Below, in pieces: positions 5,219 to 27,768 of a DNA stretch of 64,000 nt. The stretch covers positions 62,001 through 126,000 of the forward strand of contig JAAFJG010000004.1 of NCBI GenBank assembly GCA_013298075.1, given 5' to 3'. Position 1 is the stretch's first letter. Each line of letters starts with the position of its first letter. The DNA is from Cytophagales bacterium. Its GTDB lineage: Bacteria > Bacteroidota > Bacteroidia > Cytophagales > Microscillaceae. The translations under genes were made by a program, and so were the position numbers. Under the pieces are notes generated by a model. The model searched no databases. It saw nothing but the letters and a program-made list of their open reading frames with translations, and was not told the origin of the DNA.

Positions 5219-7435
5219 TTAGTTGATTTCTAATCCGATCACTAACACATCGTCAATTTGTTTTTCATTACCTTCGTTTATCCAATCTTCGAATGTATTT
5301 TTGAGTGTTTGTTGTTGTATTTCGAGGTCTTGGAAAGCCAATTTACCTAATAATTCTCTTAATTTTGTAGATAAAAATTTCTTGCCTTCTTTTCCGCCAA
5401 ATTGGTCTTGAAAACCATCAGTAAATAAATAAAAAGTAGTAGGAATATCTATGTTTATTTCGTGTGAAGTAAATATACGTTCTTCTTCTTTTTGCTCGCC
5501 ACCGATAGGCATTTTGTCGCCTTTTATTTGATGAATTGTATCGTTTTGTATATAAACCAATGAATTTTTTGCACCCGCGAATGTTGCTTTTTTCTCTTTT
5601 TTATCTATCACCAACAAAACCAAATCCATTCCATCACGATTATTACTTTCTGCTTGTTTGAGTGTTTTTCGGATATTTTTATGCAATTCATTTAAGATTT
5701 GGTCGGGAGATAAAACACCTTCATTCAAAATAATTTGATTTAAAACTTCATTGGCAAGCATAGTCATCAACGCACCCGGAACTCCATGTCCTGTGCAGTC
5801 AATAGCCGCTGCAATAATTTTATCATTTTTTTGTTCGATATAATAAAAATCGCCTGAAACAATATCTTTTGGCTGAAAAAATATAAAATTTGAAGGTAAG
5901 ATTTTGGCTATTTCTTCTTTATGAGGCAACATACTGAGTTGTATGCGTTGAGCATAATGAATACTATCTGTAAGATTTTTATTGATATATTCAATTTCTT
6001 CTTTTTGATGATTCACTACTTCCAATGTAATGCTAAGTTCTTCATTGGTTTGGTTGAGTTCTTCTACAGATTCCGCCAACGCTTGAGTTCGTTCTGTTAC
6101 TTTTTGTTCCAATACTTCTTTTTGCTCTGTGATTAAGCGCACATTTTCTTTTTGGGCATTACGTTTTTCTCTTTCAGTAGTTTTTATTTTGTCTGATAAT
6201 CCAAATGATAAAATAAATGCTTCGCCTATAACTCCAAAACTGAGTATTATATCACTCAAATTAGATGATATAGGAAATCCGAATAATTGCATTACGTATG
6301 TTAAGGCACTTAAAATCAATAAAATCCAAGCGCCAAAAAAGAAAAAAGCAGGTCGGTATCTTTTATATGTACCATATACACCTAAAAATACTGTGAAAGT
6401 AAAAGATACAAAAACGTATAAGGCTAAAAAATTTATATAACTTGACAGCAAATTTGTGAATACATAAACAAAAAAAGGTAACAAAATAATAACTAAAATA
6501 CCTAAATAATAATAAATTTGAAATATAATTGTATATATTTTGGGAAATAAGGTTTTTACTTTTAAGAAATGATTTCCAAATTGTAAAGCACTTACACAAG
6601 CCAATATAGCACAAAAATTGACAAAAAAACCTGCAATGATTGGTATATTTGGGTATAAAAACTGAAAAGCCAATCCATTTACGCCTATTATATATCCAAA
6701 TATAGCAAATAAATATACTACATAATAAAAATAAGACTTATCTCTTATACTCAAATATAATAATAAATTATAAATAGCTAATCCAAATATAATGGCTGAT
6801 GTAAAAATTATTCTCCCTAAATAATATTGTGCTTCTTGTAAGATTTCTATGTCTTGTTTGAAACATAAATCGTGTTTTTTAGCATAATACCCTGAAAATT
6901 TTATGTAAATATAAAAATTTTCTTGCTTTGGAAATGGATATAAAAACTGAAAATATAAAATAGGTCTTTCATAAAAACCATAAGCATCACCCCCTCTATA
7001 ATGCTTTATTAATTTTAAGTTTTCATCTACAAAGTTTACATCTAAGGTATCAATATTAGGACTATAAAAATGCAAAAGCCAAGTATCTGTATTTTCTTTG
7101 GGTTTATTTACTTTTATTCTAAACCAAAAATCAGAAGACGAGTACCCTTGATTGGGATGTTTTTGTGTTGAAAGTTTAAATTGATGATGATATTCTTTTG
7201 ATAATACGTCTTTTAAGGTTAATTTGTGTGTTTTATCTTCCAAAATCTCTACTAAATGCCCCAAAGGGTACACTGTTTTTTTTTCATTTTCTTGAATAAA
7301 TACCGTATTTTGTGCGTATATATTCGAAAGTGAAAGTAAAAAAAACAAACCAATACATAGAGAAAATCTAAATGAATTAAATGATAAGGGCGTAACAAAA
7401 GAAGTATTCATACAATTTTTTATGTATTTTTGCAT
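5219..7435 (-). CDS. 7TMR-DISM sensor with SpoIIE-type PP2C phosphatase
   Basis: A membrane signalling phosphatase of 738 residues. It has a signal peptide (about 20-42, ending YAQN). A periplasmic 7TMR-DISM extracellular domain follows, with YSSSDFWFRIKVNKP near residue 100. A seven-helix membrane block (about 205-415), a coiled coil (about 420-490) and a C-terminal SpoIIE/PP2C domain (about 495-735) complete it. Metal-binding aspartates are present in VSGDFYYIE, AAIDCTGHGVPGA and the late QIDDVLVIGL. It should dephosphorylate Ser/Thr on a partner protein in response to an extracytoplasmic signal. The SiaC-like protein at 26.8 kb is a plausible but unproven target. A TATATTTG -7 element lies at 7496-7503. 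An alternative Met is at 7411. Confidence 0.85.
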   Translation of the reverse strand: MQKYIKNCMNTSFVTPLSFNSFRFSLCIGLFFLLSLSNIYAQNTVFIQENEKKTVYPLGHLVEILEDKTHKLTLKDVLSKEYHHQFKLSTQKHPNQGYSSSDFWFRIKVNKPKENTDTWLLHFYSPNIDTLDVNFVDENLKLIKHYRGGDAYGFYERPILYFQFLYPFPKQENFYIYIKFSGYYAKKHDLCFKQDIEILQEAQYYLGRIIFTSAIIFGLAIYNLLLYLSIRDKSYFYYVVYLFAIFGYIIGVNGLAFQFLYPNIPIIAGFFVNFCAILACVSALQFGNHFLKVKTLFPKIYTIIFQIYYYLGILVIILLPFFVYVFTNLLSSYINFLALYVFVSFTFTVFLGVYGTYKRYRPAFFFFGAWILLILSALTYVMQLFGFPISSNLSDIILSFGVIGEAFILSFGLSDKIKTTEREKRNAQKENVRLITEQKEVLEQKVTERTQALAESVEELNQTNEELSITLEVVNHQKEEIEYINKNLTDSIHYAQRIQLSMLPHKEEIAKILPSNFIFFQPKDIVSGDFYYIEQKNDKIIAAAIDCTGHGVPGALMTMLANEVLNQIILNEGVLSPDQILNELHKNIRKTLKQAESNNRDGMDLVLLVIDKKEKKATFAGAKNSLVYIQNDTIHQIKGDKMPIGGEQKEEERIFTSHEINIDIPTTFYLFTDGFQDQFGGKEGKKFLSTKLRELLGKLAFQDLEIQQQTLKNTFEDWINEGNEKQIDDVLVIGLEIN

Positions 7436-21577: not shown

Positions 21578-24097
21578 ATGATGGTGAAATATATTTATAT
21601 TCTATTTTTTACGTTTTTATTTATTGGATTTCATTTCACTACACCTGCACAAAGCGTAGGCGATTTGTTAGAGCGCCTAAATGAAAGCAAAAGTTCAGAT
21701 GAAAAAGTATCTTTATATACTCAAATTGGATTATTGTATCAGAAAGAAAAAGCGTATTCTAAAGCAACAGAATATTTTTTACAAGCAAAAAAATATATTG
21801 AAAGCGATGATGAAAAAAATAGTCAAAAAATTGCTAAAGAAATTTCAATATTAGAATATTTGGGTACAGCACAAAGTTTGGTGCCTGATTATCAAGCCTC
21901 TATTCAAACGTATGAAATTTTATTTCAAAAACAAAAAGATTCCCCTGAAAAATCACGAAAAAATCTAAATATATTGGCTGATTTGCATAAAAAAGCAGAA
22001 CAATATCAAGAGGCTTTAGTAAAATATGAAGATATTTTGAGTAAATATCCTTCGAATACGAACGAACAAACGATACAAACGTACAATAATATCGGATTTT
22101 TATATAGACAAGCAGGCAATAATCAAAAAGCAAAAGAATATCTAAATAAAGCACTTGATTTAGCCAAAAAATCTAATTTACCTAATCCACTTATTACCAC
22201 TTTATTTAATGTAGGCGTTACTAATTCTTCGAATGGCAATCATAAAGAGGCTCAAAATAATTTTCAAGAAGCATTAAGTGTGGCTGATAAAAATAATTTG
22301 GTGCTTTTGACTGCGGAAGCTTATAATTATTTGGGGGCAAATTATTGGTTACAAAATAAATCTGATAATGCGATAGAATCTGTACAAAATGCTATCAAAA
22401 TTGCTCAACCACAACAAGCAGACGAGATGTTGATGGTGAGTTATCAATTATTATCAGAAATTTATCAACAAAAAGGAGAACTCAAAGAATCTCAAAAAGC
22501 CTATAAAAAATATGAAGAAATTAAAAATAAACGCATTGAAAAAGTACAAAAAGACGAAAAAACAAGGCTCGAAAATCAATTAAATATTGAAAAAAAAGAA
22601 AACGAAATCAAAGAATTGATGTCTGAAAAAGATAAACAATCTTCGGCTTTGCGTCAATCACAATTAGAAAAACAAAAACAAGAGCAAGAATTAGTGCTTA
22701 AAGAAAGAGAATTAGATTTGTATAAAAGTAATAAAGACAGACAAACTATGCAACTTGCTAATCAACTTTTGGAACAAAAAAGAGTAGAACAAATGCTCGA
22801 AATTACGAAAAGAAAATTACAAGAGGATAAACAAACACAAGAAATTGATAAATTAGCAAGCACTCAAAGATTCCAAACTGTATTAATTAAACAAAGAGAA
22901 TTAGAAAGAACAAAAGAAATTCAATTATCTGAAAAAGATAAAAAAATCAAAGAACAGCAATTAAAAGATGAAAAAATAATTAGTTATTATTATTTTTGGG
23001 TTTTTGTTTTGTTTGGATTTTGTTTATTTTTAACGTTAGTAGGCTTTATTCATACTTTTTGGAGCAATAGAAAACTCAAAAAACAAAGAAAAAGAATACT
23101 AGAACAAAAATACGTAATTGAAAATAAATCGCAAGAAATTCTTACACAAAACGAAGAATTACAGCAAAATCAAGAAGAAATCATGACACAACGTGATTTA
23201 ATTCAAGACCAAAATAAAAAATTAGAAGGAACTAACCAAAAATTAGTGGCTAATGAAGACGTATTAAAAAAATCGTTAGATAAACTTGAAAAAAGTCAAG
23301 AGGAAATAAAATTAGCTAATCTTGGGTTGGCTGAAAGAGATAGACAAATTACAAGTAGTATCAATGCTGCGATTGCTATCCAAACAGCCGTTTTGCCTTA
23401 TAAAGAAAAATTAGATAATTTATTAAAACAATATTTTATATTTTATAAACCTAAAGATATGGTTTCAGGCGATTTTTATTGGCTGAATGAATTAGATGAC
23501 CATATTTTTTTGGCTGCCGTTGATTGCACAGGGCATGGAGTTCCAGGTGCTTTTATGTCTTTGATTGCTAATAATTTATTGGATAAAATCATAAGAGTTT
23601 GGAAAATATACGAGCCAGAGGAGATTTTGGAACGTATGCACGAAGAAATTCAAATTTTATTAAGACAAAAAGAAACTGAAAATAACAGCGGAATGGATAT
23701 TGGTTTGATGAAAATAAAACAAAAAGAAAATTCTACTGATATTTGGTTTGCAGGAGCAAGGCGACCTATGTATTATATATTGCCCGAAACTTTGGAAATT
23801 AATGAACTGAAAGGAGATAGAAAATCTATTGGCGGCTTTCAAAGAGAAGAAAAATTTATCACACAATATATCAATTTACCTAAAAATACGACTATTTATG
23901 TTGGCTCTGACGGATTATCTGATCAAAATGATGCGTTTAGAAAAAGATTAGGTGAAAAAAGACTAAAAAAAATACTCATTGATATTAGTCATCTTGAAAT
24001 GGAAAAACAACGTCAAGAATTAGAAGAAATGTTACAAAAACACACCAAAAATACCACACAAAGAGATGATATTTTGTGGATTGGCATTAAAATTTGA
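21578..24097 (+). CDS. TPR sensor with SpoIIE-type PP2C phosphatase
   Basis: A signalling phosphatase of 839 residues. It has a signal peptide (to about residue 24) and TPR repeats (about 30-310, DLHKKAEQYQEALVKYEDIL and others). A long charged coiled coil (315-465), one membrane helix (about 469-491), a second coiled coil (500-605) and a cytoplasmic SpoIIE/PP2C domain (610-838) follow. The metal aspartates are in VSGDFYWLNE, AAVDCTGHGVPGAF and TQRDDILWIGI. The periplasmic TPR region probably senses a protein, perhaps the FecR-like proteins encoded just upstream, which is inference from position. It shares its output domain with the 5.2-7.4 kb phosphatase. Confidence 0.85.
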   Translation: MMVKYIYILFFTFLFIGFHFTTPAQSVGDLLERLNESKSSDEKVSLYTQIGLLYQKEKAYSKATEYFLQAKKYIESDDEKNSQKIAKEISILEYLGTAQSLVPDYQASIQTYEILFQKQKDSPEKSRKNLNILADLHKKAEQYQEALVKYEDILSKYPSNTNEQTIQTYNNIGFLYRQAGNNQKAKEYLNKALDLAKKSNLPNPLITTLFNVGVTNSSNGNHKEAQNNFQEALSVADKNNLVLLTAEAYNYLGANYWLQNKSDNAIESVQNAIKIAQPQQADEMLMVSYQLLSEIYQQKGELKESQKAYKKYEEIKNKRIEKVQKDEKTRLENQLNIEKKENEIKELMSEKDKQSSALRQSQLEKQKQEQELVLKERELDLYKSNKDRQTMQLANQLLEQKRVEQMLEITKRKLQEDKQTQEIDKLASTQRFQTVLIKQRELERTKEIQLSEKDKKIKEQQLKDEKIISYYYFWVFVLFGFCLFLTLVGFIHTFWSNRKLKKQRKRILEQKYVIENKSQEILTQNEELQQNQEEIMTQRDLIQDQNKKLEGTNQKLVANEDVLKKSLDKLEKSQEEIKLANLGLAERDRQITSSINAAIAIQTAVLPYKEKLDNLLKQYFIFYKPKDMVSGDFYWLNELDDHIFLAAVDCTGHGVPGAFMSLIANNLLDKIIRVWKIYEPEEILERMHEEIQILLRQKETENNSGMDIGLMKIKQKENSTDIWFAGARRPMYYILPETLEINELKGDRKSIGGFQREEKFITQYINLPKNTTIYVGSDGLSDQNDAFRKRLGEKRLKKILIDISHLEMEKQRQELEEMLQKHTKNTTQRDDILWIGIKI

Positions 24098-25490: not shown

Positions 25491-25794
25491 AATATTAGTG
25501 AAATTAAAATGATTAAACTGTTAAACTTACTTATACATTTATGCCAAAATTGCGTACTTTTTTGATAACTTCCAAATTTTTTTAGAATTATTTTTGTTTT
25601 TTTAGAAAATATTTTATTTTTTAACCATTTATCAAAATATCAAATTTGATAACTTATTGATTATCAATGGTTTATATTTTTTTCTATTTTTTGAAATATT
25701 GTTTAATTTTTATTTTTTTTATGAATAATATTTGAATATTACAACGAGTATTACTTATTTTTAGAATCGTTTATTCGTAGAAATTTTCCAGTGA

Positions 25795-25826
25795 GAGTTT
25801 GTCAATATCGAAGACTTGACAAACTC
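25795..25826. repeat. Repeat family 4 hairpin, copy 1
   Basis: Arms GAGTTTGTC/GACAAACTC enclose CAATATCGAAGACTTG, which itself folds towards a GAA loop. It shares its core with 25895-25939 and 36964-37006, while the outer arms differ and co-vary. Confidence 0.65.
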
Positions 25827-25894
25827 AAACTAAAAAATTGAATAACGATAATTATCTTAGAAAAAAAAGTTACAAAAAAAGTTCATTATGAATA

Positions 25895-25939
25895 GTTTTT
25901 TCAGTTGTCAATGTCGAAGACTTGACAAACTGAAAAAAC
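25895..25939. repeat. Repeat family 4 hairpin, copy 2
   Basis: Outer arms GTTTTTTCAGTT/AACTGAAAAAAC surround the conserved core GTCAATGTCGAAGACTTGAC. It lies 40 bp past the stop of the minus-strand gene at 25980 and probably acts as its terminator. Confidence 0.7.
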
Positions 25940-25979
25940 GGTGTTTTTGAGCAAACACTTTTAAATGAAAAAGAGAGAA

Positions 25980-26498
25980 CTAATTTTTACGTATCAAGGC
26001 TTCTACATCTTTATGACACGCCTCTACGAGTGTTTTTAAAATGATAAAACACAAAACACTTAATTTATAAATAGATTCTTGTTTGTTACCTGTATCTTTA
26101 AAAAAATCATTCAAATAATTTTTGCTAGCCCAAATAGCCATACGCAAAAGTTTTTCATATTTATGATGAGCGATGACATATTCGAATATAGCTTCTCGAT
26201 TTTCTGAATCTTTGGTACGCACACCTAACGCAAAATTTATCTTAAAATATTCTGCAATACTTTCCTCACAAATGACAGGTAAGTTTGGGTTTTTTCTTTG
26301 TATCATATCAAAAAACTGCGCACAAACTTGTAATAAAAAGAGATATACATTTTCATTGATTACTTTTTCAAAATTTTCTGATAAAAATTCCTTAAAAATA
26401 GGTTGTCTTTGATAAATTTCGTCTAGAAATTCGAAACCTTTTGAACCGTCCCAATTTTCTAAATACTTGAATATATCATCACTGGTGTGTACGTACAT
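25980..26498 (-). CDS. Helical protein of unknown function beside SiaBC genes
   Basis: Not recognised. The 172 residues are predicted almost entirely helical, with no signal peptide, membrane segment or known catalytic motif. Aromatic-rich stretches occur (FEYVIAHHKYEKLLRMAIWA). It is encoded on the same strand 253 bp downstream of the SiaC-like gene. It is followed by a family 4 hairpin. Its position makes it a candidate output or adaptor of the phospho-switch, but nothing in the sequence proves this. Confidence 0.45.
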   Translation of the reverse strand: MYVHTSDDIFKYLENWDGSKGFEFLDEIYQRQPIFKEFLSENFEKVINENVYLFLLQVCAQFFDMIQRKNPNLPVICEESIAEYFKINFALGVRTKDSENREAIFEYVIAHHKYEKLLRMAIWASKNYLNDFFKDTGNKQESIYKLSVLCFIILKTLVEACHKDVEALIRKN

Positions 26499-26751: not shown

Positions 26752-27147
26752 TTAATAAGGAATTAGATTAAACTCTAATTTTACGTCTTGAGCGTATTCT
26801 TCACCACTATCCAACATATCTACGTCATTTTTTTCATAGTACCAGTTAACCGTAATTCGCCCACTTTTTTCCCTTTCATATTCTTGTAGCATATTTATTA
26901 TTTCTAAAAAACGTCTTGAGGAACTTGTATTAAAATAGCTCATTTTAAAATTGAGTTCTATTTTTCTTTCAGGCGTTTCCATATATTCACGAAGCCAATT
27001 AAAAATTGGCTCGAAAAATTCAAGTGTATATTCATGATAAGATTCTCCTTCGATATGAAGAATACCTGTGGCTACATTCATAGTAACACGCGGTACATAG
27101 TCAATGCGTGGGACATAATTTGAGCCGTCAATTAATAGATTTTCCAT
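26752..27147 (-). CDS. siaC: SiaC-family (DUF1987) regulatory phosphoprotein
   Basis: A small cytosolic protein (131 residues) that in Pseudomonas SiaABCD is the target of SiaB kinase and SiaA phosphatase. The start MENLLIDGS at 27147 aligns with family N-termini; the frame extends 12 codons further but lacks family support. The conserved segment MSYFNTSSSRRFLEI carries the Ser/Thr cluster expected to be phosphorylated. It is encoded 57 bp after the SiaB-like gene. In Pseudomonas the unphosphorylated form activates the SiaD diguanylate cyclase, but no such cyclase is present here, so the output must differ or lie elsewhere. Confidence 0.8.
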   Translation of the reverse strand: MENLLIDGSNYVPRIDYVPRVTMNVATGILHIEGESYHEYTLEFFEPIFNWLREYMETPERKIELNFKMSYFNTSSSRRFLEIINMLQEYEREKSGRITVNWYYEKNDVDMLDSGEEYAQDVKLEFNLIPY

Positions 27148-27204
27148 ATTTTTTTGTGTGTTTCGATAAAATAACTTATACATTTATTTTTTTATAAAAT
27201 AATT

Positions 27205-27768
27205 TTAATTTATGATTTCATCTTCTATCTTATCTACTGTGATAGAAAGTGAAAAAAATGAGGTGTCATCATCAACGCTTTCTATATTATATTGCAATGG
27301 ATTTTTTGAACGTCTTGCCATATCTATCAAACCAATATTAGCTCCAACTCCTCCTGTGGGGCGTTTGCGTTGTTGTACGTAATAATTTCTTAATTCGTCA
27401 GAGGTCATTTGATTGATAAATTCACATCTTTCTCTCAATCCTTCTACTTTATAATTTTCGATTAAATTACCTGAATAAAGAATAAAATATTCTCTTTCTT
27501 CCTGAATAACTAACATTCCTACACCCGAAGGACGTCCTTTGATAACAGAAAATTCCTTTTGGGCAGAATGATGGTAGATATTTTGTGCTAATTCTACAAA
27601 AATCGCAAATATTCTTTTACCTATATGGAAAGAGCCTAATTTAGCCCTGAGATTTACGCCAACATCTGCCAAAACTTCCTGAGAAATAGTGCCTTTGAAT
27701 GTTAGAATTATATTTTGGTGGCTCATATCTCTTAAATATTTTATTAAACTTAAATTATTAGTATTCAT
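27205..27768 (-). CDS. siaB: SiaB-family protein kinase (HATPase fold)
   Basis: 187 residues with a GHKL ATPase fold. The N-box-like IFAIFVELAQNIYHH and glycine-rich GGVGANIGLIDMARRS are present. It lacks any sensor or membrane domain. By homology it phosphorylates the SiaC-like protein encoded immediately downstream. A -7 element (TAACTTTG, minus strand 27838-27845) precedes the pair by about 70 bp. Opposing phosphatases of the SpoIIE type are encoded at 5.2-7.4 and 21.6-24.1 kb. Confidence 0.8.
   Translation of the reverse strand: MNTNNLSLIKYLRDMSHQNIILTFKGTISQEVLADVGVNLRAKLGSFHIGKRIFAIFVELAQNIYHHSAQKEFSVIKGRPSGVGMLVIQEEREYFILYSGNLIENYKVEGLRERCEFINQMTSDELRNYYVQQRKRPTGGVGANIGLIDMARRSKNPLQYNIESVDDDTSFFSLSITVDKIEDEIIN

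What the first reader, a model, noticed from the sequence alone, without database searches (positions are those of the whole stretch)
26752..27768. SiaB/SiaC phospho-switch without a SiaD cyclase
SiaB-like kinase and SiaC-like target are adjacent and two SpoIIE phosphatases lie within about 22 kb, yet no diguanylate cyclase is seen. The output of the switch is therefore open in this lineage.
Basis: partly seen in the sequence, partly recalled or inferred. Interest (0 to 1): 0.6.

Follow-up and report, generated by a model that had tools for sequence, protein, structure and literature searches.

The report
SiaB–SiaC switch without its cyclase
This bacterium carries a kinase and its target protein from a known on/off switch, but not the signal-making enzyme that the switch normally drives; its relatives appear to connect the same switch to membrane proteins and histidine-kinase-like proteins instead.

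Summary
Window 27205-27768(-) encodes a SiaB-family kinase and 26752-27183(-) a SiaC-family phosphoprotein, with key motifs kept. SpoIIE phosphatases lie at 21578-24097(+) and 5219-7435(-). No GGDEF domain was found in this genome or in the 115 SiaC-bearing genomes among 193 sampled from the order.

The pair is one unit of a network: 14 SiaC, 10 SiaB, 37 SpoIIE here. In 40 orthologous loci SiaB directly precedes SiaC in 34, and SpoIIE is within five genes in 3, so the nearby phosphatases do not look dedicated.

New: in relatives, 21 of 28 fetched genes for a GGDEF-less membrane protein lie directly after siaC. Its N-terminal stalk carries SiaD's SiaC-contact motif, and one genome fuses it to SiaC. 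The same stalk heads proteins matching HisKA/HATPase_c (4 of 16 tested). All 52 genomes with a strong stalk match have SiaC. Homology to SiaD is suggestive, not proven. No stalk protein was detected in the window's own genome, so this pair's output remains open. A separate SpoIIE-SiaB-SiaC-ABC transporter operon is conserved in its family.

The parts
27205..27768 (-). siaB-like gene: SiaB-family (DUF6272) Ser/Thr kinase, 187 aa; conserved Glu59 in FVELAQN, aligned with the Glu of SiaB (E61 in the literature)
   Evidence: PF19788 134 bits, NF038262 160 bits, PDB 6kko_A E 1.9e-17; Glu position; E and QN kept in 10 of 10 SiaB of this genome; E61 as predicted catalytic residue, PMC7647112 passage
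26752..27183 (-). siaC-like gene: SiaC-family phosphoprotein; expected phospho-acceptor Thr86 counted from the listed ATG, in YFNTSS (SiaC T68 equivalent); probable true start at Met13, window 27147
   Evidence: PF09345 142.6 bits, PDB 6k4f/6kko E 3e-15; Thr and Met13 positions; SiaC in 40 orthologous loci is mostly 125-133 aa, one 159
21578..24097 (+). TPR - coiled coil - SpoIIE (PP2C-type) phosphatase, 839 aa; possible but unproven phosphatase for the pair
   Evidence: PF07228 61.8 bits at 640-837; TPR; C-terminal part matches the SiaA model, 170 bits against a cut-off of 700
5219..7435 (-). second SpoIIE phosphatase, 738 aa, hydrophobic segments in the N-terminal half by reading
   Evidence: G000:C88:67225-67824 SpoIIE 68.8 bits; translation with SGDFYY, AIDCTGHG, FTDGF, IDDVL
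25980..26498 (-). 172-aa ORF directly downstream of siaC, no family match; not seen next to the orthologous pairs, so not taken as part of the module
   Evidence: no Pfam or NCBIfam match at E 0.001 and no PHROGs match at 0.1; no relative in the clustering of the fetched loci

Best explanation
The two genes encode a stand-alone phospho-switch. SiaB phosphorylates SiaC on the Thr of YFNTSS (inferred from family and motif). One or more of the 37 SpoIIE phosphatases, acting in trans, removes the phosphate (inferred). Unphosphorylated SiaC binds a helical stalk on a target protein, as SiaC does on SiaD in P. aeruginosa (inferred), but in this lineage the target is not a diguanylate cyclase (shown: no GGDEF). 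In relatives the likely targets are (i) a ~160-210 aa protein often encoded just after siaC, made of the SiaD-like stalk, a coiled coil and C-terminal hydrophobic helices, and (ii) proteins with the same stalk joined to HisKA and HATPase_c. The stalk-SiaC association is shown by gene order, one fusion and co-occurrence; binding is inferred, and for class (ii) there is no gene linkage. For the window's own pair no stalk partner was found, so its target is encoded elsewhere and was missed, has diverged, or is of another kind.
For: Pair identity and motifs. No GGDEF: (1 of 193 genomes, a partial match in G030, which has no SiaC). SiaB-SiaC single-chain fusions: frames of 324-348 aa in G020, G036, G079, G097, a fifth in G061 (L219). 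Stand-alone bicistron: SiaB directly before SiaC in 34 of 40 orthologous loci. Phosphatase class: all 115 SiaC+ genomes have SpoIIE against 57 of 78 without SiaC (Fisher 9e-10); SpoIIE within 5 kb of 5 of 14 SiaC (P 0.0025). Stalk: of 28 stand-alone stalk-membrane genes fetched, 21 lie directly after SiaC, in 8 families; without the six seeds 15 of 22. SiaC-stalk fusion L241. The Asp matching SiaD D83 is the one invariant column, 44 of 44 aligned stalks, with Ser before it in 38 (SiaD contacts, SiaD motif). NCBIfam's SiaD model hits 20 of 40 stalk segments at E <= 1, the next family 3. All 52 genomes with a strong stalk match are SiaC+ (Fisher 5e-15).
Against: No stalk protein was detected in the window's genome (at E <= 0.01, only 16 of 44 first-look candidates scored; 651 ORFs scanned) nor in its congener G170; congener G161 has one match at E 0.0096, not followed. 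In the own genome and its two congeners the gene after the corresponding SiaC is not a stalk gene. The stalk resemblance rests on a short helical motif: profile A1 did not retrieve SiaD from the PDB; profile A2 did so only at E 3.5, last of 15 and behind DnaJ helices, though in register. The best NCBIfam SiaD match is 0.0018, far under its cut-off. The stalk-HisKA genes are not within four genes of SiaC in any of 16 loci, and six of 28 stalk-membrane genes have neither SiaC nor SiaB beside them. 63 of 115 SiaC+ genomes show no strong stalk match (up to 16 candidates scored per genome). Relatedness of the genomes inflates the Fisher values. No phosphorylation or binding was measured.
Confidence: 0.66

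Rival explanations
1. The window's SiaC regulates a membrane transporter or other effector of a different kind, not a stalk protein: a SpoIIE-SiaB-SiaC-ABC transporter operon in the same genome (C69) shows the sort of output this genus uses.
For: In the C69 orthogroup an ABC transporter gene (ABC_tran + ABC2_membrane) directly follows SiaC in 10 of 12 family loci, with CheB-like, GAF and SpoIIE genes upstream. No stalk protein was detected in this genome.
Against: That SiaC is a different paralogue; no transporter or other third gene recurs widely beside the window pair's orthologues (at most 7 of 40 loci). Operon membership is not binding.
Confidence: 0.2
2. The pair has no dedicated output: the SiaC paralogues buffer or cross-talk through shared SiaB and SpoIIE enzymes.
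For: 14 SiaC against 10 SiaB; six SiaC genes have no adjacent SiaB; conserved loci with two SiaC around one SpoIIE.
Against: The window SiaC keeps 52-80% identity in the orthologues taken from four families and is more conserved than its kinase (66-67 vs 43-44% to Flammeovirga), which suggests a constrained partner.
Confidence: 0.1
3. The pair is a relic: genes kept after loss of a SiaD-type cyclase in an ancestor, without current function.
For: Lack of GGDEF in all 115 SiaC+ genomes of the sample.
Against: Motifs kept, bicistron kept in 34 of 40 loci from four families, 7-44 SiaC per genome in the 15 family genomes searched.
Confidence: 0.04

Closest known systems
SiaABCD of Pseudomonas aeruginosa
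   Same: SiaB-family kinase, SiaC-family substrate with the NTS phospho-site, SpoIIE/PP2C phosphatases in the genome, and in relatives a gene after siaC whose product carries the SiaC-contact stalk motif
   Different: No GGDEF found; phosphatase not in the operon; many paralogues; stalk joined to hydrophobic helices or HisKA/HATPase_c in relatives, and no stalk protein found in this genome
RsbU/RsbV/RsbW-type partner switching (recalled), and HsbA-HsbD and BgrSTUWV-BgrR as cited in PMC8457831
   Same: Kinase, STAS-like substrate, SpoIIE phosphatase logic
   Different: Kinase and substrate belong to the DUF6272 and DUF1987/SiaC families, not HATPase_c_2 and STAS; no sigma factor or cyclase seen as conserved neighbour of the pair
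SiaD diguanylate cyclase
   Same: The relatives' stalk proteins share the SiaC-contact segment, (I/V)SDRxQ-like, in register with SiaD residues 81-86
   Different: GGDEF domain replaced by a coiled coil and hydrophobic helices, or by HisKA-HATPase_c; homology to SiaD is weak and unproven

Membership tests
SiaC family (PF09345) | Profile match above curated cut-off | tested here: met
   142.6 bits vs 24.5
SiaC family (PF09345) | Phospho-acceptor Thr in the NTS motif | tested here: met
   YFNTSS aligned to YLNTSS of 6k4f; 12 of 14 SiaC of this genome keep Thr, 2 have Ser
SiaC equivalog (NF038265) | Score above equivalog cut-off | tested here: not met
   88.5 bits vs 150
SiaB family kinase (NF038262, PF19788) | Profile match above cut-off | tested here: met
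   160.1 vs 85 bits; 134 vs 26.6 bits
SiaB family kinase (NF038262, PF19788) | Catalytic Glu and the QN motif | tested here: met
   FVELAQN; kept in 10 of 10 SiaB of this genome; Glu61 as predicted catalytic residue from PMC7647112 (passage)
SiaB family kinase (NF038262, PF19788) | Phosphorylates SiaC | not testable with these tools
   Needs biochemistry
SiaABCD system | SiaD-type diguanylate cyclase | tested here: not met
   0 GGDEF matches in the genome
SiaABCD system | SpoIIE/PP2C phosphatase in the same operon | tested here: not met
   Nearest SpoIIE is 2.7 kb away on the other strand; 3 of 40 orthologous loci have one within five genes
SiaD stalk (proteins of relatives) | SiaC-contact motif with S82, D83, Q86 equivalents | tested here: met
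   SiaD motifs read from 7e6g. Of 39 non-seed stalk proteins 25 have the strict core and 39 a relaxed form chosen after seeing the sequences; Asp 44 of 44, Ser 38 of 44
SiaD stalk (proteins of relatives) | Detectable homology to SiaD over the stalk | tested here: inconclusive
   NF038266 hits 20 of 40 segments, best E 0.0018; PDB profile searches E 3.5 or no hit
SiaD (proteins of relatives) | GGDEF domain | tested here: not met
   No GGDEF by Pfam in the seven stalk-bearing proteins scanned (L085; L230, L241, L255, L259, L263, L268); no GGDEF match in any SiaC+ genome of the sample

The most novel reading that the evidence does not exclude
In Cytophagales the SiaB/SiaC/SpoIIE switch has been separated from c-di-GMP across the whole order. 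The SiaC-binding stalk is a portable input module: in SiaD it drives a diguanylate cyclase, here it is joined to a membrane anchor and to HisKA-HATPase proteins, so a Ser/Thr partner switch feeds directly into membrane or His-Asp signalling.
Probability: 0.45. Interest if true: 0.78.

Novelty: new variant of a known kind. Interest (0 to 1): 0.62.

Why it matters
In the papers seen here SiaC has one known job, activating a diguanylate cyclase. An order of bacteria in which SiaC is common (115 of 193 genomes sampled, up to 44 copies in one) while GGDEF is all but missing (1 of 193) shows that the switch must have other outputs. A shared stalk motif next to, and once fused to, SiaC gives a specific and cheap test of what those outputs are, and would make the function of a widespread family (DUF1987) testable outside c-di-GMP signalling.

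Tried and rejected
Dedicated nearby phosphatases: rejected for this pair (3 of 40 orthologous loci). The 172-aa ORF after siaC as output: no family, no relative beside the pair; its weak hit to the first stalk profile (E 0.025) covers 15 residues without the motif. Stalk protein in the window's genome: the best hit of the stalk profile, L098 53-301, reads as RNA polymerase omega (recognised from memory) and is taken as chance; other weak hits, of SpoIIE and coiled-coil proteins among them, showed no motif by the pattern used there. A first regular expression found no motif outside the seed family. Profile A1 against the PDB found only other helical or coiled-coil proteins. I used the single genome-contig scan on one protein instead of an alignment and got only 8 loci. 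The hydrophobic-end-only class (receiver or TPR plus the same end, L247, L271-L274) was set apart because it lacks the stalk; G015, G076 and G117, with such matches, have no SiaC.

Rows dropped or not seen: the family neighbourhood set took 75 regions from 12 genomes and left out G047 and G088, and the list is itself truncated; in one of the 75 (L182) my ORF caller found no SiaC. Alignment A2 (40 segments) was cut at the motif, so its invariant Asp is circular and I cite instead; of 46 stalk-class loci it leaves out L241, L247 and four near-duplicates (L230, L236, L238, L243). Of 16 stalk-HisKA loci, 4 were given to Pfam and 3 read in full. One search reports 116 of 193 genomes at E <= 0.01; most weak ones look like generic coiled coils, and I counted only matches below 1e-10 covering the stalk. 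The six orthologous loci without SiaB directly before SiaC are L119 (contig end), L128 and L137 (SiaB before a tandem SiaC pair), L134, L135 and L139.

Papers: searches listed nothing, by title or abstract start, about SiaC targets other than SiaD in the held library; DUF1987 occurs in one paper and DUF6272 in none. Seen: PMC8457831 passages and section 8, PMC7647112 passages, PMC7278518 whole text, PMC9239204 passages; the rest as search listings only. The EMBO J. 2020 paper was not seen, only cited.

Full report
What is there. The minus strand at 27205-27768 encodes a 187-aa protein of the SiaB kinase family (PF19788 134 bits; NF038262 160 bits, cut-off 85) and at 26752-27183 a protein of the SiaC family (PF09345 142.6 bits). 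Both find only their P. aeruginosa counterparts in the PDB at significant E-values (6kko_A 1.9e-17; 6k4f/6kko SiaC 3e-15). Both fall below the curated equivalog cut-offs, so they are family members, not SiaB/SiaC equivalogs. The SiaC phospho-site reads YFNTSS, the SiaB motif FVELAQN. The start given for SiaC is probably 12 codons too early.

No cyclase. The genome (4.71 Mb, 153 contigs, 97.9% complete) has no GGDEF match, while the search rang in 8 of 14 control genomes. Of 193 genomes sampled from the order, 115 have SiaC and one has a GGDEF match, a partial one (profile positions 3-77 of 161) in G030, which has no SiaC. The order is taken as Cytophagales because G063 shares a contig length with the Flammeovirga pacifica record.

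One unit among many. The genome has 14 SiaC, 10 SiaB and 37 SpoIIE, against 3 STAS and 7 HATPase_c_2 matches, two of them strong. The 15 family genomes searched carry 7 to 44 SiaC each. Eight of the 14 SiaC have SiaB next to them. Of the 14, 12 keep the Thr and 2 have Ser; all 10 SiaB keep the Glu and QN. All 115 SiaC+ genomes have SpoIIE, against 57 of 78 others. SpoIIE lies within 5 kb of 5 of 14 SiaC, the window pair among them, expected 1.06 (P 0.0025, uniform placement).

The window pair itself. From the relatives of its SiaC I fetched 40 loci in 38 genomes of families f1, f2, f4 and f18, at 52-80% identity. SiaB directly precedes SiaC in 34, SpoIIE is within five genes in 3, and no third gene recurs in more than 7, all of these in f18, the family of Flammeovirga. 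Several loci are cut short by contig ends, and some at 55-58% identity in f4 may be paralogues. To the nearest named Flammeovirga loci SiaC is more conserved (66-67%) than SiaB (43-44%). The pair therefore looks like a self-contained kinase-substrate unit that meets its phosphatase and its target in trans.

Gene order in the family. With 75 further regions from 12 family genomes (G047 and G088 left out; SiaC called in 74), three other patterns emerged. (a) In the orthogroup of own-genome locus C69 an operon: CheB-like, GAF, SpoIIE, SiaB, SiaC, ABC transporter, lipoprotein-like gene; the transporter follows SiaC in 10 of 12 loci (families). (b) In the C77 orthogroup SiaB, SiaC, SpoIIE, SiaC in 11 of the 12 loci at 76% identity or more, and in none of 5 more distant ones. 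(c) In the C82 orthogroup SiaB, SiaC and then a 168-211 aa protein without Pfam match in 6 of 15 loci, two of them the SiaB-SiaC fusions of G020 and G036; the own genome and its two congeners lack it there.

The stalk. The protein of pattern (c) has an N-terminal helical segment with the core (I/V)SD(R/K)LQ, H for Q in one of six. The SiaC-SiaD structure paper lists the SiaD residues touching SiaC, among them S82, D83 and Q86, with T68 of SiaC bonding S82 and Q86 (PMC8457831 section 8). From PDB 7e6g the two SiaD motifs read VRLERIARISDGFQSMAREQ and RRLEKVARISDRYQQMMRDL. The core [ILVM]SD.[YFLMIVW]Q, drawn up from SiaD and this family, occurs in 7 of 1727 ORFs of the neighbourhood loci, 5 of them this family. 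In a wider set it is in 30 of 50 proteins matched by the family profile and in 6 of 2217 other distinct ORFs; shuffled family proteins have it in 0.27% (30 of 11200).

Spread. A profile of six such proteins was searched in the 193 genomes. Of the 30 loci returned, 28 are stand-alone stalk-membrane genes; 21 directly follow SiaC (8 families), 1 follows SiaB, 6 have neither beside them; one locus is a SiaC-stalk fusion (L241) and one a TPR protein with only the hydrophobic end. Leaving out the six seeds, 15 of 22. By coordinates, seven more matches, not fetched, lie just after SiaC (G054, G095, G023, G039, G003, G166, G016). In G009, G028 and G044, each with a single SiaC match, that SiaC is followed by the stalk gene. 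A second class, 16 loci in f2, f4 and f18, joins the stalk to ~240 residues; the four given to Pfam match HisKA and HATPase_c above cut-offs. The three I read in full keep the H-box but lack a clear DxGxG, so they may be inactive or divergent kinases. None of the 16 is within four genes of SiaC. By my reading, 52 genomes have a match below 1e-10 that covers the stalk, and all 52 have SiaC, while 63 SiaC+ genomes show none (Fisher 5e-15; phylogeny not corrected). In 44 aligned N-termini the Asp matching SiaD D83 is the one invariant column; the Ser before it is kept in 38.

How good is the SiaD resemblance. Forty stalk segments, cut around the motif, were scanned one by one against NCBIfam: the SiaD model hit 20 at E <= 1, the next family 3 (best SiaD E 0.0018, far under its cut-off). 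Pfam gave nothing consistent (6 of 40 at most). Against the PDB, profile A1 missed SiaD and profile A2 found it at E 3.5 in the correct register, behind DnaJ helices. This is suggestive similarity of a short helical motif, not proven homology. A model of the SiaC-stalk fusion (mean pLDDT 83.6, pTM 0.47) shows a SiaC fold (7e6g_D, TM by target 0.91) and helices 192-280 and 285-323; it does not say whether SiaC docks on the stalk.

The gap. In the window's own genome no stalk protein matched at E <= 0.01, but only 16 of 44 first-look candidates were scored; congener G170 had none and G161 one at 0.0096. A direct scan of 651 ORFs in about 0.8 Mb, overlaps included, found none either. So the order-level answer does not yet reach this pair. 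Its target may be unrecognised, diverged, or of another kind such as the transporter of pattern (a).

Verdict. Shown: pair, absence of GGDEF, paralogue network, stand-alone bicistron, stalk gene next to or fused with SiaC in relatives. Inferred: phosphorylation, dephosphorylation by SpoIIE in trans, stalk binding. Open: the target of this SiaC.

Noticed in passing
L093 3103-14155(+), own genome contig C69: Conserved family operon: CheB-like methylesterase, GAF protein, Cache/GAF/PAS-SpoIIE, SiaB, SiaC, ABC2-type transporter and a ~300-aa lipoprotein-like gene.
   Followed up: partly
L091 6907-10919(-), own genome contig C77: SiaB, SiaC, SpoIIE and a second SiaC in one conserved cluster (11 of 12 close family loci): one kinase with two substrates around one phosphatase.
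   Followed up: partly
L271, L272, L273, L274, L247: The C-terminal hydrophobic end of the stalk proteins also occurs behind receiver domains (L271, L274 by Pfam) or TPR repeats (L247), in genomes with and without SiaC, so it looks like a separate module.
   Followed up: partly
L259, L263, L268: The three stalk-HisKA proteins that I read keep the His box but lack a clear DxGxG in the ATPase domain; they may be pseudokinases.
   Followed up: no
window 25790-25940: Two similar intergenic palindromes (TGTCAATRTCGAAGACTTGACAAACT core) about 100 bp apart, upstream of the S24/HTH gene.
   Followed up: no
L101 14008-17014(-), own genome contig C107: A divergent SiaC (NSGA instead of NTSS) follows a PAS-HisKA-HATPase_c histidine kinase gene with one base between them.
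   Followed up: no
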